A DNA stretch of 64,000 nt from Sphingobacteriaceae bacterium GW460-11-11-14-LB5 (GTDB lineage Bacteria > Bacteroidota > Bacteroidia > Sphingobacteriales > Sphingobacteriaceae), in assembly GCA_002151545.1 (NCBI GenBank), contig CP021237.1, forward strand, positions 1,116,001 to 1,180,000, in the 5' to 3' direction. A program made the translations under genes and the position numbers. Shown here one piece after another: positions 47,470 to 60,565 of this stretch (positions are counted from its first letter, which is position 1; each line of letters opens with the position of its first letter). Under the pieces are notes generated by a model, which had not been told where the DNA came from, ran no database searches, and worked only from the letters and a program-made list of their open reading frames with translations.

Positions 47470-47481
47470 ATTAGTTGTTAA

Positions 47482-47516
47482 ACAAAAAAAGCCATCATTG
47501 CTGATGGCTTTTTTTG
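47482..47516 (+). terminator. Terminator after the LysR gene
   Basis: AAAAAAAGCCATCA and TGATGGCTTTTTTT form 14-base arms with a short loop and a T run. The hairpin is followed directly by the tRNA-Leu 3'-end-like sequence. Confidence 0.85.
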
Positions 47517-47553
47517 TTCGATTTTTTTTGTGTACTCGGGGCGGGAATCGAAC
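47513..47553 (-). repeat. tRNA-Leu 3'-end fragment with downstream T-tract (possible attachment-site remnant)
   Basis: About 41 bases, TTGTTCGATTTTTTTTGTG plus TACTCGGGGCGGGAATCGAAC, are identical to the segment that follows and includes the 3' end of a tRNA-Leu-like copy at 48770-48809. They nearly match 60322-60358 (one base differs). Only the acceptor and T-arm half (47533-47553) is present; the rest of the tRNA is missing. Such a partial copy is the usual trace of integration at a tRNA 3' end. Confidence 0.65.
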
Positions 47554-48592: not shown

Positions 48593-48622
48593 TACTAACC
48601 TTGGGACGTTAGTCCCGTCCAG

Positions 48623-48707
48623 TACTCGGGACGGGAATCGAATCCGCACGCCTTTGAAAGCATCCCGACTTAGGTCGGGACGCGTCCATCAGTTCCACTA
48701 TCAACCA
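48623..48707 (-). pseudogene. tRNA-Leu pseudogene 1 (anticodon arm replaced)
   Basis: Read on the minus strand, the T-arm and 3' acceptor match tRNA-Leu (with GGATTCGATTCCCGTCCCGAGTA ending). The anticodon arm is a TCCCGAC..GTCGGGA hairpin with a CTAA centre instead of a normal 7-base loop. The 5' acceptor strand (about TGGTTGA) cannot pair with CCCGAGT. It is not expected to make a functional tRNA. It shares the same odd arm with copy 2. Confidence 0.7.
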
Positions 48708-48740
48708 TTAGCCTTTCGGTCTATAAGAAATGACTATAAA

Positions 48741-48771
48741 CAAAAAAACCTTTCATTTCTGAAAGGTTTTT
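48741..48771. terminator. Terminator hairpin downstream of tRNA-Leu pseudogene 2
   Basis: AAAAACCTTTC / GAAAGGTTTTT arms around ATTTCT-type loop, then T run. The same hairpin follows the intact tRNA-Leu genes at about 48911-48936 and 60295-60318, so the downstream sequence was duplicated with each tRNA copy. Confidence 0.75.
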
Positions 48772-48788
48772 GTTCGATTTTTTTTGTG

Positions 48789-48873
48789 TACTCGGGGCGG
48801 GAATCGAACCCGCAGGCCTTTGAAAGCATCCCGACTTAGGTCGGGACGCGTCCACCAGTTCCACTATCAACCA
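48789..48873 (-). pseudogene. tRNA-Leu pseudogene 2 (anticodon arm replaced)
   Basis: Same organisation as pseudogene 1 but closer to the intact gene: the T-arm is CGGGTTCGATTCCCG with the normal CCCGAGTA end. The anticodon arm is again a perfect hairpin with CTAA at its centre, and the 5' acceptor is unpaired. The variable arm GCTTTCAAAGGC is retained. The two pseudogenes lie 166 bases apart in tandem, so they arose from one aberrant copy. Confidence 0.72.
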
Positions 48874-48953
48874 TTAGCCTTTCGGTCTATAAGAAATGAC
48901 TGTAAACAAAAAAACCTTTCATTTCTGAAAGGTTTTCGTTCGATTTTTTTGTG

Positions 48954-49037
48954 TACTCGGGGCGGGAATCGAACCCGCACGCCTTTGAAAGCACAGGATT
49001 TTAAGTCCTGCGTGTCTACCAGTTCCACCACCCGAGC
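48954..49037 (-). tRNA. tRNA-Leu (anticodon TAA), copy 1
   Basis: The 84-base gene reads GCTCGGGTGGTGGAACTGGT at its 5' end, with a CAGGA-CTTAAAA-TCCTG anticodon arm (anticodon TAA), a long class II variable arm (GCTTTCAAAGGC), a T-arm and CCCGAGT acceptor with discriminator A. CCA is not encoded. It follows tRNA-Gly on the same strand in one transcript, from the promoter at 49213-49243. A near-identical pair sits at 60337-60565. Confidence 0.95.
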
Positions 49038-49107
49038 ATTAGCCTGTTCCGAAATCCTTCGGTAGGTTAACTTTAAAATAAATGCCTTCTGTGAGGAAGG
49101 CATTTAG

Positions 49108-49180
<73 letters not shown>

Positions 49181-49383: not shown

Positions 49384-49720
49384 ATGAAAACAGATCAAAT
49401 TCTTGTTTATCACACTAAAGATGGTGAAACAAAAATAGTCGTAAGGCTTGAAAATGAAACAATTTGGCTTACCTAGATCCAGATTGTTGGACTTTTTCAG
49501 CGTAGCGAGGCAAACTTAGCGAACATATTAAACATATTTTTCAATCCTAGGAACTGGATAAAGAATCAACTGTTCGGAATTTCCGAACAGTTAGAGAAGA
49601 AGGAGAAAGAAAGGTAAATAGGGATTTAATGTATTCTAGTCTTGATTTAATCATATCGGTAGGATATTGTGTCAATTCTATAAGGGGTATATAATTTCAT
49701 ATCTGGACAAATAAAGTGTT
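49384..49720 (+). pseudogene. Decayed rhuM-like (virulence RhuM family) gene
   Basis: The ATG at 49384 opens MKTDQILVYHTKDGETKIVV, RLENETIWLT, then a TAG stop. Beyond it, in shifted frames, are KESTVRNFRTVREEGE and LDLIISVGYCVNS, then FHIWTNKVL. This order matches what I recall of RhuM proteins (start with a phage-antirepressor-like domain containing WLTQNQMAELF, then KESTV..F.TVQ.EG, then ISVGYRVNS..G..FRIWA). At least one nonsense change and frameshifts interrupt it. RhuM genes commonly ride on mobile islands and restriction loci. No intact copy is present. Confidence 0.6.
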
Positions 49721-49931: not shown

Positions 49932-51032
49932 ATGGCAATTAGATTTAAAGATATCAAGCCCGGCCCCCAGACTCATGTAATGATTATCGGGGTTGGCCAT
50001 TATCCATACCTTACAGGGGGTGACGAGGAAAAGGTACAGACCTTTGCCTTGGCCAAGGGACTTGGACAGTTGGATTCTACCGTGATTTCGGCACATGCCT
50101 TTTATGATGAGGTAATGGCGCTTCAAACAAGCAGTTCGTGGATCTCACCCCTTGGTAGTGTTGAGCTTTTGACCGATGGGGTAGAAGAGGCAACCAGGGC
50201 GAATGTGGAAAGAGCATATTGGGAATGGAAAGAGCGCTGCAGTTCCCATGAGGATAATGTAGCGGTATTCTACTATGCCGGACATGGCTTTGGGATGCCG
50301 CAGGAGCAATACCTTGTCCTGTCAGATTTTGGAAGGTTTCCTGCAAATCCCTGGAATTCATGTATTCCCTTTAGTGCTACCCGAATGGCCTTTCATGCCT
50401 GTAGGGCAAAGACCCAGCTTTTTTTCGTGGATGCCTGCCGGTCCGTAACTGCCGATGTGATGAGAAATACGATCGTAGTGCCCAATGTGGATGTGATTGA
50501 TAATCTTCAGTCTGAGTGCATCCATAACCTGACTGTCCTCGGATCTGCTGCAAATGAGCAGGCATTCGGGATCAAGGGCGGAACAAGTTATTTTCTCGAA
50601 GCTATCTTAAGTGGATTGAGAGGCTTTGGCGCGGAAAACGGTGCGGAATGTATCATCTCAACGGCAGATTTTCCGCCGAATATCAACAATTGGCTCTCCC
50701 TTGCGCAGCGAAAGGATTCATCAGCCCAGCGTTGTACCGCAACGATCAATAAGCCAGGGAATTTCATTAAGCTGCCCAAGCATCCCGATGCCGAACTTGA
50801 ACTGGACTGTATTCCGGCCGATGCAGTGCCGTTGGCAAGTTTCACTTATATGGGGGCAGCTGGAAGCCAGAGTCGGGCCCCGGAAGTTGCGCCCTGGAAG
50901 GTAAAGATTCCAGCAGGGATCTATCAGATGTCCGTCAATTTTACCGTTCCACATTACCAGAACAAAACGGATTTCAAAAAGGTGGTCGCACCCGGAATCA
51001 GGCAGATTTTTAACGTTAAAGTCGAACTGTAA
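49932..51032 (+). CDS. Caspase-like cysteine protease (C14 family)
   Basis: The ATG at 49932 gives 366 residues (MAIRFKDIKPGPQTHVMIIG); a GTG 18 bases upstream is less likely. The p20-like fold (~12-230) has the catalytic His in FYYAGHGFG (His118) and the catalytic Cys in FFVDACRS (Cys169), both preceded by the expected hydrophobic strands. The C-terminal part (~280-366) is beta-rich and Ig-like, containing LASFTYMGAAG and VKIPAGIYQMSVNFTVPHY. No signal peptide is seen, so it is probably cytosolic. It overlaps the next gene (TAATG) and begins the + operon of the island module. Its G+C content is visibly higher than that of the flanking chromosome. Confidence 0.9.
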   Translation: MAIRFKDIKPGPQTHVMIIGVGHYPYLTGGDEEKVQTFALAKGLGQLDSTVISAHAFYDEVMALQTSSSWISPLGSVELLTDGVEEATRANVERAYWEWKERCSSHEDNVAVFYYAGHGFGMPQEQYLVLSDFGRFPANPWNSCIPFSATRMAFHACRAKTQLFFVDACRSVTADVMRNTIVVPNVDVIDNLQSECIHNLTVLGSAANEQAFGIKGGTSYFLEAILSGLRGFGAENGAECIISTADFPPNINNWLSLAQRKDSSAQRCTATINKPGNFIKLPKHPDAELELDCIPADAVPLASFTYMGAAGSQSRAPEVAPWKVKIPAGIYQMSVNFTVPHYQNKTDFKKVVAPGIRQIFNVKVEL

Positions 51033-52297
51033 TGGCAGGAAATAATAAGATCAGGATTTTTGGAGATGTATCCTCTAAAAATGATTTTGCACTTAAAACG
51101 GCAAAACAGGTTGAGCTCCTGGATGAAAATCTTAACCGGGTGCAGTCCAAATGGATTACCGGAAACAGTTTTAACTATCTCGATGTTGATCCCGCGCTTT
51201 ACGTGGTAAAACTTTCTTTTTCAACCGGTGAGCAGTATAGTAAGGTTGTAGATGTTCGTGAGGGAGGCGATAAATCAGTAGACTTTGATCTTGAGGACCT
51301 CGTGGAAAAAGACAAAGCTTTCTCCGGTCCCCAGGAGATGGATTTTATACTTTCCGAAGAAAGCAATCTGGAAATGCATGCACCTTCAGGAACTTCGGGA
51401 GGAATTGATCTGGATAATGATAAATCTGGAAGCATCTTCAAGTATGAAATAGACCGAAGTGTTCAGTTCCAGCTCAAGCGTCTTTACCTTCATGCGGGTA
51501 ATTTTCTTCCCGAGACCATCATCACCTTCAGCGATTCTGAGCTAAGGGATGGACCTTTGAATCATGATTTTTTTAGCGGTAAAACCACTTTGTTGCTCCT
51601 CGAGTCCAACCGCTATGAACCGATCCTGCTTTGCTGTCCGTTCAATCAGCATATGTCCGTACAGATCAGGCTTAATCCGATTGAAGAGAAGTCAATTCCC
51701 ATCGAGATTAAACTGATGTCCGAAAACTCTATTGCAGAATCACTCTTGAATCTGATGAGCAATGGCAGTATGATCCAGGCAGAGTCATTTTTTGATGGGG
51801 CAGTGGCAGCAGAGATGTTGTTTCAGGAGAAGCGTCGCGATGCAGCGGCAGCGGCGATCGGCGGTTACTTTTTACTCAAGATCAGGGACTATGAGCGGAT
51901 GCATAATTGGGCCAATAATCTGGCCAATTGGTTTGGATGGATGCCTGATGGATGCATTATCCACGCATGGCAGATGATCAATGATGGTGTGAATGAACCT
52001 GGTGATGAATTAAGGGTGAGGGAGAGGCTGCTTGAAGCGCAGCAACGGGGAATTCCTTTATACACAGAAGGCGTCCGCCTATTATTCGATGGCTTAAAAC
52101 AGCTCCATACCCTTGCCAAGGGACGGGATCGAGAAATTGCAGCTGCGCTGGAGATGGTGGATACTTACGTCGGAAAGATCGACTGGAGCCAAAAGAATAC
52201 CACTGTAATTAACCCCGGGCGTAAGATTAATGGAGAAGAAATCCCATTGACTGACCGAAATGACCGTGGATTTTTGGATAGATTATTTGATCAATAA
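51032..52297 (+). CDS. Unknown protein of the caspase operon (beta-sandwich + helical domain)
   Basis: This 421-residue protein is translationally coupled to the caspase gene by one overlapping base. The N-terminal ~90 residues look like an Ig/CarboxypepD-type beta-sandwich (VELLDENLNRVQSKWITGNS, VDPALYVVKLSFSTGEQYSK). A middle beta-rich part follows, then a helical region (~250-385) rich in Ala, Trp and Leu (AEMLFQEKRRDAAAAAIGGY, NWANNLANWFGWMPDG, AQQRGIPLYTEGVRLLFDGL). This region could be TPR-like. No catalytic motif is seen. It may be an adaptor or substrate of the caspase; I do not recognise the family. Confidence 0.8.
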   Translation: MAGNNKIRIFGDVSSKNDFALKTAKQVELLDENLNRVQSKWITGNSFNYLDVDPALYVVKLSFSTGEQYSKVVDVREGGDKSVDFDLEDLVEKDKAFSGPQEMDFILSEESNLEMHAPSGTSGGIDLDNDKSGSIFKYEIDRSVQFQLKRLYLHAGNFLPETIITFSDSELRDGPLNHDFFSGKTTLLLLESNRYEPILLCCPFNQHMSVQIRLNPIEEKSIPIEIKLMSENSIAESLLNLMSNGSMIQAESFFDGAVAAEMLFQEKRRDAAAAAIGGYFLLKIRDYERMHNWANNLANWFGWMPDGCIIHAWQMINDGVNEPGDELRVRERLLEAQQRGIPLYTEGVRLLFDGLKQLHTLAKGRDREIAAALEMVDTYVGKIDWSQKNTTVINPGRKINGEEIPLTDRNDRGFLDRLFDQ

Positions 52298-52308
52298 CAA
52301 ATACTGAA

Positions 52309-53373
52309 ATGAGTTTAACCATTAGATTTTTTCCGGCCAGATATGGTGATTCGATCCTGATAGGTTATGGTGATGCCGGAAACCTCAAATATATTCTGAT
52401 CGACGGGGGTACAGGAGGGACGCGATCAGAAATCCTTTCCTTTCTTAATGGATTGCCAGATGGGCATAACCGACTAGAGATAATGGCTGTTACCCATATT
52501 GATAAGGACCACATTGAAGGGGTTCAGCGAATCCTGGAAGCAGATGCGCTCGGTTTTGAAGTTGGGGATTTTTGGTTCAACGGCTATCACCACCTTTCTC
52601 CGGAAAGACCGGGTGAAGAAGCTTATGGTTCCAGACAGGGCGAGCTGATGACCGGAGATCTACTTCGGCACAATCTGAAATGGAACGATATTGTTGGCGG
52701 AGCTGCGCTTTTTGTACCCGAGGAGGGACCTCTTCCAGCTTTTGAACTGCGTGGTGGGCTCAAAATTACCCTGCTTTCCCCTTCTCTTCAGCACCTTTTT
52801 GATCTCAAACCGTTATGGGAGGCTGAACTGTTGAAGCTGAAACTTGAGTCGGGATTTGGTTCTGAAAAGGCGGAACCGAAGAGGGGTGATGAGCAAGCTT
52901 ATGGAGCCATCAATGTAGATGCGCTCAATGCAATGAAGTTTGAAGAGGACCGTGCTGAGGCCAATGCCAGCAGCCTCGCTTTTCTGCTTGAGTTTGAAGG
53001 CAGAAAAATCCTATTACTGGGCGATGCGCAGCCAGGCCAGATTTATCAGAGCCTGAAAAGGCTTCAGCCCGAAGGCAGATTTGCGGTGGATCTCTGCAAA
53101 ATCTCCCACCATGCGAGTCGCGGAAATACCAGTCCGGAGCTTCTTGAACTTTTAGACTGCAACCATTTTGTGATCTCCACCAATGGTTCTATCTATGGCC
53201 ATCCCCATCAGGAGACCATTGCCAGGATCATCAAGCGTTCTTCAGCCGATGTAAAACTTTATTTTAATTACCGCACCAAACATAATTCGATCTGGGAGGA
53301 TGCTGACCTTTGCTTTATGCACGGTTACTCCACCACTTATGGAAAGAAAGGAATGTTGGAGATCTCGCTCTGA
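52309..53373 (+). CDS. MBL-fold metallohydrolase, ComEC-C-terminal-like
   Basis: A 354-residue metallo-beta-lactamase-fold protein. It has AVTHIDKDHIEG (HxDxDH, His63 to His68), Asp in ILLLGDAQPG (Asp239), KISHHASRGN (His267/268) and a late IYGHPHQET His pair (~298-300). This is the ComEC/Rec2 C-terminal type, in which the substrate may be nucleic acid or a phosphoester. There is no ComEC membrane part. It begins 11 bp after gene two and ends the + operon. Its stop is 22 bp from the convergent patatin gene stop. Confidence 0.85.
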   Translation: MSLTIRFFPARYGDSILIGYGDAGNLKYILIDGGTGGTRSEILSFLNGLPDGHNRLEIMAVTHIDKDHIEGVQRILEADALGFEVGDFWFNGYHHLSPERPGEEAYGSRQGELMTGDLLRHNLKWNDIVGGAALFVPEEGPLPAFELRGGLKITLLSPSLQHLFDLKPLWEAELLKLKLESGFGSEKAEPKRGDEQAYGAINVDALNAMKFEEDRAEANASSLAFLLEFEGRKILLLGDAQPGQIYQSLKRLQPEGRFAVDLCKISHHASRGNTSPELLELLDCNHFVISTNGSIYGHPHQETIARIIKRSSADVKLYFNYRTKHNSIWEDADLCFMHGYSTTYGKKGMLEISL

Positions 53374-53395
53374 TCGGCAAGTCCCCAACATTTCT

Positions 53396-55087
53396 TTAGC
53401 GCTTTGCGACGGCCGGCTTTGCGGCCATCTCATCATACATAAAGTAGGGATCTTTCCTGAAACGATCAAAATCTGCTATGCACTGCGCATAGACTTCATC
53501 GATGAGTGTCTTATTGGTGGTATCCATTTCGGCATAGCCACTGCAACTATCCGTCATAATCTTTTCCAGGTAGATCTTCATGTTGAAGCACATGGTGAAC
53601 TCACCCGATGCAATGAGCTTTCTCAAGGTCTGGTCAAGTACCTGCGTATCGGTGAACCAGAGGGATGTCCCGCATGTGGCAGCCTCCTCTGCTACTTTTT
53701 TAATGTTCTTGCCGATCAGGGTATCGTAATCTCCCTTTTGGCGTTTCTTGAAATCCGCTTCGGTCAGTTCTTTGATGCGGTTGTCTATCCGCTTAAACTT
53801 ATAGCGCTCGTCCTCATAAAGGGTATTGTAGTTCAGCCTACGCACAATTTTGAGAAATACCTCGATCAGTAGGGTGATCAGGGAGTTTGCCCTGTCCATG
53901 ATCAGTGGCTCGAGCCGGTGGAGCGAAAGCTGGTCAATATCGAGTGCCGAAAGCTTTTCCTGATAGAATTTTGGGATCAGGGCCAGAAGTTTTGCAGCTA
54001 ACCATGATCTTCCCTTTTGGAACTGCCTTAAAAGATAGTTTTTGGAAATCATCAGCGTCATAGTAACTCCGCTCAGTCCTAAAAAAATGCCAGTGGCAAT
54101 GTTGTGCTCATAGTGCCAGAAAAGCGGCAGGGACGGGAAGAGCAGTAGGCAGAGTGATAAGATAGTATTGATCCGCTGATCGATCCGCTGCGCCGTGGTC
54201 TTGAGTTGGCTATAGGTATATGCCTTGATGCCCTCCTTTGGCCCTGGAATAAATGGTTTGAATGCCTGCATGTCGGGAGAGGCAACATCTGAGATGATAA
54301 TCAGGTCAAAATATGGATCTTTACTGTAAGAAAGGATGCTGTCGATTCCCTGGTTGTCAAAAATGCCACCATCCATTACCCCCATTGGTGGCTGCTGTTT
54401 TACAAGGTTGCTCGCTTTTAATGCGCTCAGGTTCGGGCTTTGGTCGTGGATAAAATCGTCTGGCCAGAGCATAGGCTCGAATCCGCCCGGGAAACAGGAC
54501 GAAGCCGCGATGATGTCGGCCATGCTGACTTCATCCAGCTCCGGTCCGTAGATCCGGTTGTAAAAGTTTCCAGCATAAGAAGTTAGACTTAGGCTAATGT
54601 TCTTGAAGCGAAAGTTGATGGCATTGCTGAACTCGGTCGAGTTGAAAACGACCTGTTCGAGTTTGTCGGGAAGGATTTGAAGCTCCGCCATTACTGCATT
54701 CCCGGTAAAATGTTTCTTATACTGCTCGGCGAAGGCATTGATCAGGTTCTTCGTCTTTCCGGGGTTTTTCCAGACCGCGTCCGGATTGAGTTGTGTAATC
54801 CCGGTCCGCACCAGATCAAGGCTTTCCAGTTGTTGCAGCAGTAGCTCATAGATCTTTTCAAAACTTACTTTCTGTTTCCGCATGAGTACATATACTACCC
54901 CGGTTATCGTTCCTCCCGAAACCGTAGAGATCATCCGAAGATTCTGTAGAAGAGGATTTTTATCATAAATAAGCCGGTTAAGATAGGCCATTGTTCCCAG
55001 ATGGAACGAAGCAGCACGGTAGCCTCCGCCCGAGAGGCTAAGGGCAATCTTGTCAAGTGGGTTGATTAGTTTTTGGTTGCTTTCCAT
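53396..55087 (-). CDS. Patatin-like phospholipase with transmembrane segments
   Basis: This 563-residue protein opens with the patatin oxyanion motif SGGGYR (Gly20-Arg24) and a nucleophile elbow STVSGGT (Ser57, in a TVSGG context rather than the canonical GxSxG). The catalytic Asp is in VMDGGIFDNQG (Asp239). Between, ASSCFPGGFEPM is family-typical. Two hydrophobic segments (about 308-324 and 331-348) suggest membrane anchoring, followed by a helical C-terminal region. It should cleave membrane phospholipids. It is the last gene of the - operon, starting 2 bp after the stop of the 796-aa gene. Confidence 0.87.
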   Translation of the reverse strand: MESNQKLINPLDKIALSLSGGGYRAASFHLGTMAYLNRLIYDKNPLLQNLRMISTVSGGTITGVVYVLMRKQKVSFEKIYELLLQQLESLDLVRTGITQLNPDAVWKNPGKTKNLINAFAEQYKKHFTGNAVMAELQILPDKLEQVVFNSTEFSNAINFRFKNISLSLTSYAGNFYNRIYGPELDEVSMADIIAASSCFPGGFEPMLWPDDFIHDQSPNLSALKASNLVKQQPPMGVMDGGIFDNQGIDSILSYSKDPYFDLIIISDVASPDMQAFKPFIPGPKEGIKAYTYSQLKTTAQRIDQRINTILSLCLLLFPSLPLFWHYEHNIATGIFLGLSGVTMTLMISKNYLLRQFQKGRSWLAAKLLALIPKFYQEKLSALDIDQLSLHRLEPLIMDRANSLITLLIEVFLKIVRRLNYNTLYEDERYKFKRIDNRIKELTEADFKKRQKGDYDTLIGKNIKKVAEEAATCGTSLWFTDTQVLDQTLRKLIASGEFTMCFNMKIYLEKIMTDSCSGYAEMDTTNKTLIDEVYAQCIADFDRFRKDPYFMYDEMAAKPAVAKR

Positions 55088-55089
55088 GC

Positions 55090-57480
55090 TTATCTGCTTT
55101 TAAGAAAATTTAATAATGGGATGTCCAACACAAATGCGGCACTGATCCTGGAATAACGGGTATCTGCTTTTTCGGCAACTGTATCCGAGAGCTTGCGCAG
55201 GAGCGGTCCGGTCTGGTAACCGATATTGAATGAAATGGGAACCTTTGGAATCCCCAGTGAAATAAAAGCTCCAGGAGAAATGATATCGCCTAGCTTGATA
55301 GTTGGGATCTGCTCGGTCTCATCATCCTTAAACCTAAAGGCGACCGGCGCCCCAATATCAACGATGGATAAAAATAAGCTTGCCGACCAACCAGCCTTTT
55401 TATTAAAACCAAAGGACTTATTGATGGCAATTCCGATCGGAGCGGTCAATCCAGCAGTATTTAGTTTGTAGCTGTTGTCAAGACCATGGATTTTTTCTGA
55501 CCCCACGTAAGGACCTACATACGCATTTAAGGAAATACTGAAACTGTTCTGTCTTTTCATCGAAGCACTGCCTACAGGGAGGGCGACTGCCTTGATCGCA
55601 GCGGAAATGTCTGACGAGCTGGAAGCGTTCACCACATTAGCCATGAAATTCCCGTATTTTTTGATAAAAGTTGCTGTTTTTGAAGATTCTTCATTGGCTT
55701 TTTCGCTGGCCTTTTCGGCTGCCTCTTTGGTTTTTTGGTCATCCAGGTTTGCTGTTTGGGGTTTGGTCACATAGATTTCACCATTCGGAGTCTGGAGCTC
55801 ATTTGAGGATTTGTCCCGTTGACCAGTATACTGGGAATAAAGGTTGAAGATATCAACCACTGCAGAACCATAATTGTTGCGATTGAGGTTAAGCGCCAGG
55901 TTTGCTGCATTCTTGGTATAGGCCAGGTATTCGGGAATCTTTACAGCTAGGGGATTGGTGATGCCAAGTGCCGCCAGTTTCTCATTGTTTGAGAGTATTT
56001 CGATGATCTCGGTCGAGGAGAGGAAGATCCGGTGGTAAAGCTCGATCCGGGGCTGTTCGTTCTTTTTTTCCTTGAGCTCAGCCAGAGCACTTTCAATGGA
56101 ACTGCACTTTTCACCGATCTGTTTGATGAGCGCGATCGCTTCTTGAACCTTTTCGGCCTGTGGTGCAAGTTTGTTCAATGCAGCGGTTAGCTTCTCCCCA
56201 CCAAAGGAGATTTCGCTAACCTGTTCATAAAGTAGTCCAAGGTAAAGTCTGGCGACAAGAAAGTTGTTTTCGGAGCTAGCTAGCAGCTTTAATTTCTCTT
56301 TTGTCTCCCAATATTTTCCTTCATCGGGAGATCTTAGGGACTCGGAGATAATCTGGACAAGTTTGATGCTGGACTTAAGGTCGGTGTTGTTGATCTTATC
56401 GATGTAATCAGTGGGAAGATCACGGATGATGTCGGCCGGATGATTTCCTTCGGTGAGCTCCATGGCGATAAACAGGCCGATCAGCGCAGAATATTTGAGG
56501 TCGGGATGGTCAGTGAAATAAACACTGAACCTGCCTTCTTTAATAACCTTTGGCATCCTGTCAAGCAGCAATGAGAGATCCTCCTTAAAGCTTTCCCTCA
56601 AGGTCGAGATGTAGTTCTCGAACATATAGATGTCCCGATCGATCACATTTAAAGTTTCCATGGTGCGCGGAAAAAGGATCTGTGCATCCCGGTATTCGGG
56701 TTTGTTGATAAGTTCCTTAAACCGTCTGAAGAAGGCGATACTGAGTTCCTGCTTGCTCCGCTCGACCAGGAATTTGGCCATGCCGTCTGTTGCACTAGTA
56801 ACGTCCCAGCCAAGAGCCTTGGCGCCGAATTGGGCGATGCCACCTGAGTTAATTCCTGCAGCAGTTTCTTTCATGCTCTTGGCATTAAGCTCTTCGAAGA
56901 ATTTCTTCATAAAAGCATTGTCCCCATATAATTTCGCCAGCTCCTTGGGGTCTTTCTCATCGGTATGCTTAAGCTTGGCCAATAAAATATAAATCCCATT
57001 ATCGCCCTTTTTGAATAGGTCAGATAATGTTAACGCATCCTGGAGTGCCGAGTTATAAACATTGGTATTTTTGTTCTGGGGCGGTTCTTCCCTATTGTCA
57101 TTGTTTTTGATTCTGATAAATTTGCGCATATAATATATGCCGATGCCCTGACTCCCGCTCAGGCTGAGTTTTTGGTCATCTGCTAACATCGTTTCCAGCA
57201 TCCGGGTGGTGTTGCTATAGCTGATTTTGAGAATATAGTCGGTGCCGCTTTTTTCGATCACGGGTTTTTGCTCAACACCCTGATCGCTTAAAATGGTGAT
57301 GGGCGGTGCTTTGGAAGCCTTTTCACCCTGAAAGATGATTTTGATGCCCTGGGCGAACTTGGCTGCTACAGACTGGGTATCCTGGAGCTTGGTAACATTA
57401 ATGTTCAGATCCTGTGCGCTGGACAGGTGGCTGCAGAGTAGGAGAAAAAGGAAAGCGAGGTAAAAATATTTTTTTTTCAT
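55090..57480 (-). CDS. Large exported protein of unknown function in the island
   Basis: The 796-residue protein has a clear signal peptide (FYLAFLFLLLCSHLSSAQ). Most of it (~120-640) is helical with no recognisable enzyme motif; an Ala/Glu-rich coil lies near ~600 (KEAAEKASEKANEESSKT). The last ~145 residues (FSISLNAYVGPYVGSEKIHG onward, with GWSASLFLSIVDIGAPVAF and FNIGYQTGPLL) look like amphipathic beta-strands. It may be a periplasmic or outer-membrane component that couples the lipase and protease genes to the envelope. It lies between the patatin and trypsin-like genes with gaps of 2 and 10 bp. Confidence 0.8.
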   Translation of the reverse strand: MKKKYFYLAFLFLLLCSHLSSAQDLNINVTKLQDTQSVAAKFAQGIKIIFQGEKASKAPPITILSDQGVEQKPVIEKSGTDYILKISYSNTTRMLETMLADDQKLSLSGSQGIGIYYMRKFIRIKNNDNREEPPQNKNTNVYNSALQDALTLSDLFKKGDNGIYILLAKLKHTDEKDPKELAKLYGDNAFMKKFFEELNAKSMKETAAGINSGGIAQFGAKALGWDVTSATDGMAKFLVERSKQELSIAFFRRFKELINKPEYRDAQILFPRTMETLNVIDRDIYMFENYISTLRESFKEDLSLLLDRMPKVIKEGRFSVYFTDHPDLKYSALIGLFIAMELTEGNHPADIIRDLPTDYIDKINNTDLKSSIKLVQIISESLRSPDEGKYWETKEKLKLLASSENNFLVARLYLGLLYEQVSEISFGGEKLTAALNKLAPQAEKVQEAIALIKQIGEKCSSIESALAELKEKKNEQPRIELYHRIFLSSTEIIEILSNNEKLAALGITNPLAVKIPEYLAYTKNAANLALNLNRNNYGSAVVDIFNLYSQYTGQRDKSSNELQTPNGEIYVTKPQTANLDDQKTKEAAEKASEKANEESSKTATFIKKYGNFMANVVNASSSSDISAAIKAVALPVGSASMKRQNSFSISLNAYVGPYVGSEKIHGLDNSYKLNTAGLTAPIGIAINKSFGFNKKAGWSASLFLSIVDIGAPVAFRFKDDETEQIPTIKLGDIISPGAFISLGIPKVPISFNIGYQTGPLLRKLSDTVAEKADTRYSRISAAFVLDIPLLNFLKSR

Positions 57481-57490
57481 GTTGTTTGGG

Positions 57491-58918
57491 TTATAATTGG
57501 ATGACCGAATCTGCTTCTTTCAGGATTTCAACAAGAGGGAGGGCGTAGGTAAAATTGCTGTCTGCAGCGATTACCATCCCTATAGGGTGATCGTGTTCAT
57601 CGTATACGCATGCACCGGAGTCGCCGGGAAAGCTTAGCGAGCTATAACTGGTGACCCCGTTTTTGGTACTTATGTCCGAGAGCAGCATGAGGTTGATTAC
57701 CCCAAAATTCCCATCACTATATTTGATTTCAATGGGCATGGGTACATTTGCATTAATGATCGTTCCATTCTTGGGGATCCTTCCCTTTTGACGGATGACC
57801 CTGACCTTGGTGACCTTGATGTCTGCGCTGCTAACCGGTCTGGCATTTTTGGTGGGGTGGATGTAGGAAAAATTGTCGTTTGGAATGTTGATCAGCGCCG
57901 CATCCAGTTTACTGTTGCAGATCGCCCAAAAGAATTTTCCATTTTTGGTTTTATCTACAACACCGCTAATGGAGGGACTGATGTTGCCAAAATGATTCGT
58001 TGAGTTGCCCCCTTCCAGCACATGGCTACAGGTAAGCAGACCCAGTTTATCGTCCGAATTCCTTTTTACCTGGCAGCAGATGGTTCCATCAAGAGTTGAA
58101 TTGCTTCCTAGGCCTACCGGGTCACCCTGTTGGCTCTGCACCGTAGGCGGATTTCCCTGAACAGGGACCAGGTTGACAGGAACCAAAATCACCTGCCCCT
58201 TTTCCAGCTTCACTTCTACTTTTGAGGGAAGGATCGGGCTGGTTCGGGTAATTACCCTAATATCGATACAGTCCACCAGCTTTCCTTTTTCCATCATCTT
58301 GCCGTGCATCGGAGGGGCCATGGTTCCTTTCGGGCTGAGCGCGGAAAGATTCTGGCTGATGGCATCCTGAATAATGGATCCATACCGCTTGGAGACATAC
58401 TCATCAAACTGTTCGATGTCTTCCGCATTGAAGGTGTTCTCATCTGCAAGTTTCCGCTTGATGTTCTTCACCTGATAAAGCATATCCAAAAGATCGTGGA
58501 AGAACTTGGATCCAAAGGTGAGAAAGAATCCGGTCAAGCCAATGGAGGCCAACAGGCGGAAGTCGAGCAGAGTGCTGAAGGTCGGAAGTGGGTCCCAGAA
58601 TATGACCATCCTTGGATCCGGTTGCTTAAGCATTTCGAACAGGTCGATATGAAAAATCCCTGCAATCAGGATTCCGATGATCAGGCTTAATGAAGTGACC
58701 TCGCGTTCGATCTTTTTTTTCTGTTCGGGGCCCCGGTCATTTGATTTCCTGTTGACGTTCCGCCAGATCCGAGTAGCAAAAGTTTTGTATAGCAAGTTTC
58801 CCGGCCTGATGAAAGGCGAGTATTTGCGTATGAGCTGGGTGACCTTTTCCACGATCACGCTCAGGAGGAAGAGAATGATCGCAATCGAGATCAGGCAGTC
58901 CAGAATATTATTTTCCAT
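57491..58918 (-). CDS. Membrane-anchored trypsin-like serine protease
   Basis: This 475-residue protein has three N-terminal hydrophobic segments (about 5-27, 74-92 and 121-140), then a linker. The trypsin-like domain occupies ~270-475. The triad is complete: His299 in LLTCSHVLEGG, Asp339 in NSKLDAALINI and Ser434 in SFPGDSGACVYD. Topology predicts the protease on one face of the inner membrane. It starts the three closely packed genes trypsin - 796-aa - patatin. The pairing of a trypsin-like and a caspase-like protease in one island is unusual. Confidence 0.88.
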   Translation of the reverse strand: MENNILDCLISIAIILFLLSVIVEKVTQLIRKYSPFIRPGNLLYKTFATRIWRNVNRKSNDRGPEQKKKIEREVTSLSLIIGILIAGIFHIDLFEMLKQPDPRMVIFWDPLPTFSTLLDFRLLASIGLTGFFLTFGSKFFHDLLDMLYQVKNIKRKLADENTFNAEDIEQFDEYVSKRYGSIIQDAISQNLSALSPKGTMAPPMHGKMMEKGKLVDCIDIRVITRTSPILPSKVEVKLEKGQVILVPVNLVPVQGNPPTVQSQQGDPVGLGSNSTLDGTICCQVKRNSDDKLGLLTCSHVLEGGNSTNHFGNISPSISGVVDKTKNGKFFWAICNSKLDAALINIPNDNFSYIHPTKNARPVSSADIKVTKVRVIRQKGRIPKNGTIINANVPMPIEIKYSDGNFGVINLMLLSDISTKNGVTSYSSLSFPGDSGACVYDEHDHPIGMVIAADSNFTYALPLVEILKEADSVIQL

Positions 58919-58962
58919 TTTGTTTAGGTTTGGTTAAAGAAAATTTAACTGCTTTTTTTTTG

Positions 58963-59778
58963 CTAATCCAATAAGGAATATCCTCCGCGGGGCTTAGATC
59001 CGTTGATAAGCGTTCCCCAAAAGCTTGCATGTCTTTTCCTCAGCTGATCGATTTCCAATGCGGTGGGGAAACGGTTTCCGGATTCATCATAATATCCCTT
59101 ACTATAGTATACCGCGTGGGCAGTATTCCATATCAATAGGTTAGCATGAGTGCTTAAAGTTTGGTAAGAAGGGTTTTCATCCAAAGGAAGGACTTTTAAG
59201 CCCAGAAGTTTATAGATTTCTTCGGTCCTATAGCCGCCATTGATATCTGCTAAAGCCTCACTATAGCTGCCAGTGGCTGGCTCCGTCAGTCCCTGATAAC
59301 GCTTCACGAGTACTGCGAAGCAGAGCTGGGCATAGTTGAAGATTTCCTTGAGTTCCTTTTGTGCCGTGTCACCGGGAAGGAACGCGCTGGCAGCGCTGGC
59401 CATTTCCAGTTCAGCTAGCGTTAGGCTTAGCAGGGTGCCGTCCCTGAGGATGACCGCTATCCCGTTCTCCCTCAGATGCTGCTGAAAAACTTTTCCGGTA
59501 CCATAGGTGCCGATGGCAGCTTTGATAATTGCTACCGAGGCGCAATTTCCAGCTTTTTTTTCCTGGGTTTTTACAATGCCCTGCTTGAATGCGGAGAATA
59601 GGGGGCTTGATGATTGTGCAATGGCACCGCTGTTTATCAACAGCAGGATAATCAGAACATAGGTTGTTCTTTTTTTATTTCGGGTCCCTGCGTTTTGCTG
59701 CGCACAGGAGTTCCAAAAGATCGTTTCCCTCCAACTGCATGGAAAGAAAACGCGCTCTTTTTTGAGTGCATTGTTCAT
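58963..59778 (-). CDS. Exported protein, putative cysteine peptidase-like
   Basis: A 271-residue product from the ATG at 59776-59778; the hydrophobic stretch YVLIILLLINSGAIAQ (~40-55) looks like a signal peptide displaced by ~35 residues, so the true start may be a later non-ATG codon. The mature part has a conserved-looking KKAGNCASVAIIKAA (Cys79) and WNTAHAVYYSKGYYDESGN (His221, with Asp/Asn following), an order compatible with a papain- or C39-like Cys-His pair. It lies 44 bp upstream of the trypsin-like gene. The catalytic assignment is tentative. Confidence 0.6.
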   Translation of the reverse strand: MNNALKKERVFFPCSWRETIFWNSCAQQNAGTRNKKRTTYVLIILLLINSGAIAQSSSPLFSAFKQGIVKTQEKKAGNCASVAIIKAAIGTYGTGKVFQQHLRENGIAVILRDGTLLSLTLAELEMASAASAFLPGDTAQKELKEIFNYAQLCFAVLVKRYQGLTEPATGSYSEALADINGGYRTEEIYKLLGLKVLPLDENPSYQTLSTHANLLIWNTAHAVYYSKGYYDESGNRFPTALEIDQLRKRHASFWGTLINGSKPRGGYSLLD

Positions 59779-60290: not shown

Positions 60291-60336
60291 AAAAAACCTT
60301 TCATTTCTAAAAGGTTTTCGTTCGATTTTTTTTGTG

Positions 60337-60420
60337 TACTCGGGGCGGGAATCGAACCCGCACGCCTTTGAAAGCACAGGATTTTAAGTCCTGCGTGTCT
60401 ACCAGTTCCACCACCCGAGC
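60337..60420 (-). tRNA. tRNA-Leu (anticodon TAA), copy 2
   Basis: The 84-base gene is identical to 48954-49037 wherever I compared it: the same acceptor, anticodon loop CTTAAAA, variable arm and discriminator. The AAAACCTT/AAGGTTTT hairpin and T-run that follow are also shared. It marks the right side of the island. Confidence 0.95.
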
Positions 60421-60492
60421 ATTAGCCGCTACCGATCTCCATCGGCTTGGTTAACTTTAAAATAAATGCCTTCTGGTAGGAAGGCATTTTGG

Positions 60493-60565
<73 letters not shown>

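What the first reader, a model, noticed from the sequence alone, without database searches (positions are those of the whole stretch)
49932..59778. Convergent caspase / MBL / patatin / trypsin module in a tRNA-bounded island: candidate undescribed conflict system
Seven compact genes lie together: on + a caspase-like protease, an unknown adaptor-like protein and an MBL-fold hydrolase; on - a putative cysteine peptidase, a membrane trypsin-like protease, a large exported protein and a patatin-like lipase. The operons meet tail to tail with 22 bp between stops. Catalytic residues are visible for caspase (His118, Cys169), trypsin (His299, Asp339, Ser434), MBL (HxDxDH) and patatin (Ser57, Asp239). 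Caspase-like proteases (with gasdermins), patatin lipases (CBASS CapV) and trypsin- or caspase-type effectors are known from conflict systems, but I know of none with this gene set. No NTPase sensor, nucleotide cyclase, gasdermin or reverse transcriptase is present, so the trigger is unknown. Lipase plus proteases suggests regulated membrane damage.
Basis: partly seen in the sequence, partly recalled or inferred. Interest (0 to 1): 0.9.

Follow-up and report, generated by a model that had tools for sequence, protein, structure and literature searches.

The report
Caspase-switched nuclease defence operon beside lipase
A bacterium carries a three-gene operon in which a caspase-like protease is predicted to switch on a DNA-cutting enzyme, likely to stop virus infection, with a lipase gene beside it that may be an accessory; in related operons an unrelated hydrolase takes the nuclease's place, and many members of that hydrolase family carry a short sequence like the one the protease likely cuts.

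Summary
The three + strand genes (caspase, adaptor, MBL enzyme) have the gene order, MALT1-like caspase and two glycine-bearing insertions of canu caspase-nuclease anti-phage systems, described in 2025. The trio recurs in 17 other loci compared (Bacteroidota, Polyangiaceae, Alphaproteobacteria, Streptomyces). The - strand trypsin and exported-protein genes are a separate pair: absent from 18 of 18 adaptor-found loci, while the trio is absent from 20 of 20 exported-protein loci. A patatin adjoins 6 of 18 trios, but none of 14 relatives of this patatin elsewhere lies near such a caspase. The tRNA-bounded island is a variable cargo site. New here: both insertions of 18 of 18 aligned caspase-linked nucleases carry [EDQ]-x-[FYL]-G, and each of 18 adaptor-found loci has exactly one of two enzymes, this nuclease or an unrelated alpha/beta-hydrolase. 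113 of 131 aligned hydrolases carry a like tetrapeptide in two loops, though only 4 of 15 with a caspase seen beside them carry both. This suggests one caspase-adaptor switch with an exchangeable gated effector. No step is tested in this organism.

The parts
49932..51032 (+). caspase-like protease (CanA-like), 366 aa: caspase domain with His118/Cys169 and a C-terminal beta-rich domain (about 277-361)
51032..52297 (+). adaptor (CanB position), 421 aa: N-terminal CnaB/transthyretin-like domain and C-terminal TPR-like helical domain; precomputed Pfam PF27295 on its 30 listed homologues
52309..53373 (+). MBL-fold pro-nuclease (CanC-like), 354 aa, ComEC-like with two insertions; predicted cut sites EAYG (residues 104-107) and QAYG (196-199)
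   Evidence: PADLOC LmuA 6e-75; family profile matches ComEC (9ic4) only at 3-76 and 215-304; motif counts
53396..55087 (-). patatin-like phospholipase, 563 aa, two hydrophobic segments 306-325 and 330-349; candidate accessory enzyme of the + operon
   Evidence: Patatin 5e-16; Ser57/Asp239 in 6 of 6; a patatin is next to the trio also in L017, L025, L027, L028 and L087
55090..57480 (-). exported protein of unknown fold, 796 aa (signal-peptide-like start and beta-rich C-terminal part, both judged by eye); part of a separate protease module
   Evidence: 58 homologues; 25 of 395 genomes of the class, two of them weak and several over the C-terminal part only; 0 of 20 places hold genes 1-4
57491..58918 (-). 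trypsin-like protease with N-terminal membrane segments (1-32, 73-99); partner of the exported protein
   Evidence: Trypsin_2 0.0019, below cut-off; a trypsin- or subtilisin-type protease gene is beside the exported protein in 11 of 20 places
58963..59778 (-). protein of unknown family, 271 aa; same strand as the protease pair
   Evidence: no Pfam/NCBIfam/PADLOC hit
48953..49180 (-). left tRNA-Leu(taa)/tRNA-Gly(gcc) pair, island boundary
60336..60565 (-). right tRNA-Leu/tRNA-Gly pair next to recX, island boundary

Best explanation
Genes 49932-53373 are a caspase-adaptor-MBL operon with the gene order and the two glycine-bearing insertions of canu anti-phage systems, and the caspase is predicted to cut the MBL pro-nuclease at two [EDQ]-x-[FYL]-G sites and so free a DNase that would destroy DNA in an infected cell. 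Steps: (1) infection is likely sensed by the caspase-adaptor complex (inferred from KaeCanAB; trigger unknown here). (2) The caspase becomes active (catalytic residues and predicted MALT1-like fold shown; activity untested). (3) It cuts the nuclease at Gly107 and Gly199 in the two insertions between the ComEC-like core halves (sites conserved; cleavage inferred). (4) The opened nuclease degrades DNA (inferred from HamM, Avs1a and CanC). (5) The tail-to-tail patatin is likely an accessory hydrolase that may add membrane damage; it carries no copy of the motif, so activation by the caspase is not supported. The trypsin/exported-protein pair is a separate module sharing a cargo site.
Against: No activity, phage or expression data for this locus. 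The C-terminal domain of the caspase was not tested as Ig-like: the structural list covers 9-282 only. NCBIfam Avs1a (224 of 420 bits) and caspase_w_EACC1 (37 of 140) stay below cut-off. One of the 18 trios (L032) has the MBL gene upstream of the caspase, not downstream. A second MBL gene in L028 has neither motif site, and the MBL gene of L091 (no caspase found) has E-P-F-S at site 1 but E-V-F-G at site 2. A scan for short conserved islands did not return either site in the nuclease alignment at three settings. The patatin lacks the motif, and none of 14 of its relatives elsewhere lies near such a caspase. Several Bacteroidota loci are close relatives (four Aquimarina), so counts are not independent.
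Confidence: 0.8

Rival explanations
1. All seven genes form one conflict system in which proteases and the lipase act together.
For: They lie together at about 46% G+C in one island. Close homologues of the adaptor (P0001, 85%) and the exported protein (P0031, 92%) both list a longest contig of 143,715 bases, which suggests that one other sequence holds both halves. In one exported-protein place (L064) the next gene is a caspase-FGE-sulfatase protein of another kind.
Against: 0 of 18 adaptor-found loci hold genes 5-7 and 0 of 20 exported-protein places hold genes 1-4. The caspase profile of the trio does not hit any frame of those 20 places even at E 10. The island is a variable cargo site in the genus.
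Confidence: 0.08
2. The patatin is the true effector: the caspase activates the lipase, and the MBL protein is a regulator.
For: A patatin lies beside 6 of 18 trio loci, in several arrangements (tail to tail in the window and L017; upstream on the same strand in L025 and L027; downstream in L028; upstream and divergent in L087). In adaptor loci without the MBL gene a hydrolase stands beside the caspase.
Against: The patatin has no [ED]-x-[FYL]-G, no patatin was found beside 12 of 18 trios, and in 14 other genomes its relatives stand without such a caspase. The MBL enzyme keeps its H-x-D-x-D-H metal motif and both candidate cut sites.
Confidence: 0.1
3. The trio is not a defence system but a stress- or development-linked caspase switch.
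For: No phage or defence test exists for this locus. In 395 genomes of the class the adaptor was found full length only in the window's own genome. Adaptors elsewhere are fused to HSP70 or glyoxalase domains.
Against: Nearest characterised relatives of the MBL enzyme are defence nucleases, KaeCanABC protects against T4, and 15 of 23 plasmid records with a relative of the caspase are typed conjugative.
Confidence: 0.12

Closest known systems
canu (caspase-nuclease) systems, KaeCanABC; PMC12799240
   Same: Caspase - middle protein - MBL nuclease in this order; MALT1-like caspase; two insertions with conserved glycines in the nuclease.
   Different: Adaptor relation to CanB untested; patatin next door; the paper's main text has no 'patatin' or 'lipase' (its figures and supplement not seen).
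Gated MBL nucleases of Hachiman (HamM), AVAST (Avs1a), Lamassu (LmuA) and DRT (RTasMBL)
   Same: Homologous MBL enzyme (PADLOC LmuA 6e-75, Avs1a 4e-46, RTasMBL 6e-40) with insertions.
   [quoted passage not shown]); here a separate caspase and glycine sites, and no STAND, SMC, helicase or RT domain was found among the seven proteins.
Caspase with alpha/beta-hydrolase pairs in VMAP ternary systems; PMC7159879
   Same: There a caspase always has an alpha/beta-hydrolase gene next to it (passages), like the MBL-less relatives here.
   Different: The window has an MBL enzyme and a patatin instead, and none of the seven proteins hits a vWA, MoxR or VMAP-type model in Pfam. No cut site was named in the passages seen.
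EACC1-caspase two-gene systems; PMC7159879
   Same: Related caspase domain (NCBIfam caspase_w_EACC1 1.9e-9).
   Different: Score 37 against cut-off 140; no EACC1 hit among the seven proteins.

Membership tests
canu (CanABC) | caspase gene upstream of an MBL nuclease gene in a short operon with a middle gene | tested here: met
   window; same order in 16 of the 17 other trios compared, L032 has the MBL gene first
canu (CanABC) | MALT1-like caspase domain with catalytic His/Cys | tested here: met
canu (CanABC) | C-terminal Ig-like fold on the caspase | tested here: inconclusive
   model shows a beta-rich domain at 277-361, but the structural list does not cover it
canu (CanABC) | MBL nuclease with two insertions carrying conserved glycines | tested here: met
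   that the insertions block the active site was not tested
canu (CanABC) | middle protein homologous to CanB and bound to CanA | tested here: inconclusive
   position met; KaeCanB sequence not available; model shows CnaB-like and TPR-like parts
canu (CanABC) | caspase- and nuclease-dependent phage protection | not testable with these tools
   needs experiment
[quoted passage not shown]
   neighbours of the MBL gene are the adaptor and the patatin; apart from the MBL models themselves, none of the seven proteins hits a STAND, SMC, Hachiman or RT model
EACC1-caspase system | caspase above the NCBIfam caspase_w_EACC1 cut-off, with EACC1 gene | tested here: not met
   37.4 against 140 bits; no EACC1 hit among the seven
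CBASS with CapV patatin | nucleotide cyclase next to a CapV-type patatin | tested here: not met
   no PADLOC hit at E 1 or better for the patatin, and no CBASS model hit by any of the seven proteins

The most novel reading that the evidence does not exclude
A caspase-adaptor pair is a general bacterial 'initiator caspase' cassette with one exchangeable effector slot: it activates either an MBL pro-nuclease (as in the window) or an unrelated alpha/beta-hydrolase pro-enzyme, and both effectors have independently acquired two copies of the same kind of cut site, E-x-[F/Y/L]-G, in variable loops, so that one protease specificity would release DNA-destroying or membrane/ester-destroying killing. 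For: 18 of 18 adaptor-found loci carry exactly one of the two enzymes (14 MBL, 4 hydrolase); both motif copies in 113 of 131 hydrolases, as islands in variable flanks. Against: of 15 hydrolases that I saw beside a caspase only 4 have both sites (L029, L030, L096, L146) and 6 have neither; the neighbours of most of the 113 were not seen; L095 keeps both sites beside only a caspase fragment; the taxa of the two sets differ in the 18 loci; docking rather than cutting is not excluded. A hint of co-variation: the 4 hydrolases beside a fused caspase-adaptor (L031, L033, L100, L148) share LLGMG at site 1 instead. The odds were lowered from 0.45 after this recount.
Probability: 0.4. Interest if true: 0.82.

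Novelty: new variant of a known kind. Interest (0 to 1): 0.62.

Why it matters
The operon extends canu, of which one enterobacterial example is tested in the paper read, to an adaptor family found here in Bacteroidota, Actinomycetota, Alphaproteobacteria and Polyangiaceae. It names two residues per nuclease as likely cut sites. The shared tetrapeptide in a nuclease and in many members of an unrelated hydrolase family gives a directly testable rule for which proteins a bacterial caspase activates. It could also explain why caspases and alpha/beta-hydrolases were seen as neighbours in an earlier genome survey (PMC7159879). It warns that the tRNA-bounded island mixes unrelated modules.

Tried and rejected
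Seven-gene unit: rejected by neighbourhood tests. Trypsin gene as the protease partner of the MBL enzyme (Avs1/Lamassu style): rejected, because trypsin- or subtilisin-type genes travel with the exported protein instead (11 of 20 places: L059-L063 and L065-L070). Patatin activated at the same motif: no site in the window patatin, and no position shared among 6 patatins. Amidohydrolase partners: no motif conserved in at least 70% of 6 rows. A scan for short conserved islands found the sites in the hydrolase family but not in the 20-row nuclease alignment at any of three settings. Carriage in viral contigs: 13 stretches matched a pattern in IMG/VR, none encoded a relative of the adaptor. Solved relatives by sequence: none for the caspase profile at E 0.01, none credible for the adaptor at E 1. 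Ig-like matches for the caspase tail are absent from the list, which barely tests residues beyond 282. CATRA systems were considered from passages only and not tested. Literature searches with 'patatin' and 'caspase' returned mostly fungal or off-topic papers.
Full report
OBSERVATION. The label 'cysteine peptidase' for gene 7 has no support. The region lies between two copies of a tRNA-Leu/tRNA-Gly pair and has higher G+C than its flanks.

THE PLUS-STRAND TRIO. An alignment of the adaptor (gene 2) with its 30 listed homologues was used to scan one genome for each of 84,980 species and gave 18 loci. The scan did not use the neighbours, so their presence is independent information. A caspase homologue is adjacent to the adaptor (16) or fused to it (L031, L033) in 18 of 18, and an MBL homologue is adjacent in 14 of 18. 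The 14 are 13 Bacteroidota and one Polyangiaceae (L032, where the MBL gene comes first instead of last). From the plasmid searches (66 records with an MBL match; 23 with a caspase match) I read six regions for this purpose. Three are further caspase-adaptor-MBL trios (L087, L089, L090). L088 has an MBL gene without a caspase, L091 has an MBL gene with an adaptor fragment and no caspase found, and L092 has caspase and adaptor without MBL. With the window, 18 trios are compared below.

THE LIKELY CUT SITES. In 18 of 18 aligned caspase-linked nucleases both insertions carry the same kind of tetrapeptide: [ED]-x-[FYL]-G at residues 104-107 in 18 of 18, and [EDQ]-x-[FYL]-G at 196-199 in 18 of 18 (17 of 18 with E or D; the window has Q). 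The outsiders L088 and L002 (no caspase seen in the stretches read; only 4 kb for L002) fit neither site, though L002 has E-E-P-G at site 1. Two further MBL genes left out of that alignment were checked afterwards: a second MBL gene in L028 has neither site, and L091 has E-P-F-S at site 1 and E-V-F-G at site 2. That the caspase cuts at these glycines is inference.

AN EXCHANGEABLE EFFECTOR. The four adaptor-found loci without an MBL gene (L029, L030, L031, L033) each carry an alpha/beta-hydrolase gene of one family; none of the 14 MBL loci does (E 1e-5, about 10 kb each side). So 18 of 18 have exactly one of the two; the two sets differ in taxa, but plasmid trios L087, L089 and L090 show the MBL form in Alphaproteobacteria and Streptomyces too. 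The hydrolase's homologues (310 found, the 120 listed were used) were aligned with L029, L030 and L031 (123 rows) and then with eight plasmid hydrolases (131 rows). Two islands stand out, E77-x-F/L-G80 and E192-x-F/L-G195, with column entropies of 0.87/3.1/1.1/0.3 and 0.86/2.4/1.1/0.13 bits; flanks are 2.2-3.7 bits except after site 2, where most rows have gaps. With the looser pattern [EQ]-x-[FLM]-G, site 1 is present in 116, site 2 in 120 and both in 113 of 131 rows. In a scan for short conserved islands in the hydrolase family (134 rows) the strict setting returned 2 windows, one of them site 1; the relaxed setting returned 4, two of them these sites. The same scan of the 20-row nuclease alignment returned neither site at three settings. 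A count of [ED]-x-[FYL]-G conserved in at least 70% of rows gave two in the nuclease alignment, two in a 35-row hydrolase alignment, one in the caspase (at residue 131, so such a motif can be conserved for other reasons), and none in the adaptor, exported-protein, patatin and amidohydrolase alignments.

CASPASE NEXT TO THE HYDROLASE. Of 20 plasmid records with a hydrolase match I read 12 (H72-H83). A caspase frame follows the hydrolase in 11 of 12; the twelfth (L095) has only a caspase fragment at E 5e-4. No MBL gene was found in any of the 12 within 4-5 kb. With L029, L030, L031 and L033 this makes 15 hydrolases seen beside a caspase. Both sites are present in 4 of 15 (L029, L030, L096, L146), one site in 5 (L093, L094, L099, L145 and the frame-split L147, Q-T-L-G), neither in 6 (L031, L033, L097, L098, L100, L148); L095 has both. 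So the motif is frequent in the family but not general among the caspase-linked members that I could see, and the neighbours of most of the 113 are unknown. The four hydrolases whose caspase is fused to the adaptor (L031, L033, L100, L148) share LLGMG at the site 1 position, which may reflect another specificity. In PMC7159879 (passages only) a caspase always had an alpha/beta-hydrolase gene beside it in VMAP systems; no cut site appears in those passages.

THE PATATIN. A lipid, ester or amide hydrolase gene lies beside 15 of 18 trios: patatin in 6 (window, L017, L025, L027, L028, L087), a membrane amidohydrolase in 7 (L018-L023, L026; Pfam tested in two of them), a general alpha/beta-hydrolase in L089 and a Tle1-like phospholipase in L090. 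None was seen beside L016, L024 and L032. L017 repeats the window's tail-to-tail arrangement. But of 14 other genomes with a relative of this patatin among 395, none has the caspase, adaptor or exported-protein gene in the stretches read, about 8 kb each side. Two have an amidohydrolase relative next door (L187, L188), and one (L189) has two weaker MBL-type hits. The patatin has no copy of the motif. I treat it as an accessory gene, not shown to be regulated by the caspase.

THE MINUS-STRAND PROTEASE PAIR. The exported protein (gene 5) matches in 25 of 395 genomes of the class including the window's own; two matches are weak and several cover only the C-terminal part. I read 20 places in 18 of these genomes. 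In 11 of 20 a trypsin- or subtilisin-type protein is adjacent (L059-L063, L065-L070), and in L059 and L069 a papain-type peptidase is near. Genes 1-4 were found in 0 of 20; in L064 the next gene is a caspase-FGE-sulfatase protein of another kind. A full-length adaptor was found in 1 of 395 genomes, the window's own; seven other matches are weak and partial. Homologues of genes 2 and 5 that both list a longest contig of 143,715 bases suggest one further sequence with both halves; I could not fetch it.

THE ISLAND. recX was found in 26 of 26 genomes of the genus searched; I fetched eight stretches, one too short to use. In the seven scanned, the tRNA pair occurs twice around other cargo in 4 (genes that look like sugar use in two and like heavy-metal handling in one, by eye; a 1.2-kb interval in one) and once in 3. 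The island is a reusable cargo site, so closeness within it is weak evidence of function.

NOVELTY SEARCHES. Papers were searched. None of the listings showed a paper that pairs canu with a lipase or names a caspase site in an alpha/beta-hydrolase. The canu paper's main text has no 'patatin' or 'lipase'; its figures and supplement were not seen, so its Fig. 4B may show such loci.

VERDICT. A new variant of canu with a distinct adaptor family (0.8). The seven-gene system is rejected. The shared tetrapeptide and the exchangeable effector slot are the most valuable result; they are testable, and the evidence for the tetrapeptide in the hydrolase is mixed.

Noticed in passing
window 47476-47553, 48622-48950: Fragments of the tRNA-Leu 3' end with its terminator-like repeat lie in tandem left of the island, as if several earlier insertions had used the same tRNA.
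   Followed up: partly
window 49385-49600: Short remnant that reads like the start of a RhuM-type protein (label from recall) before the island genes; interrupted by stop codons.
   Followed up: no
L030:9365-12589, L029:9995-12421, L098:7300-9132, L092:7240-12606: Relatives or positional counterparts of the adaptor carry extra C-terminal domains: HSP70, glyoxalase, pYEATS, and trypsin plus PLD. These may be sensors or further effectors.
   Followed up: partly
L090, L099, L147: An S8 peptidase gene plus an ATPase/ATP-binding protein gene on the opposite strand lie next to three plasmid caspase loci.
   Followed up: no
L187:8016-10954, L188:7916-10875: The patatin family pairs with a relative of the amidohydrolase that accompanies seven other canu-type loci, without a caspase.
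   Followed up: partly
L059:13555-14544, L069:12804-13646: Papain-type peptidase genes near the exported-protein/protease pair; gene 7 of the window holds a similar place but has no family hit.
   Followed up: partly
L064:10892-12799: A caspase plus FGE-sulfatase protein (Peptidase_C14 3e-19, FGE-sulfatase 3e-50) is the next gene to an exported-protein homologue.
   Followed up: partly
L091:5476-7077: Agrobacterium pAt plasmid with an MBL gene preceded by an adaptor fragment and no caspase found: a possible decayed canu locus.
   Followed up: partly
L031, L033, L100, L148: Hydrolases next to fused caspase-adaptor proteins share LLGMG at the place of the first E-x-F-G site.
   Followed up: partly
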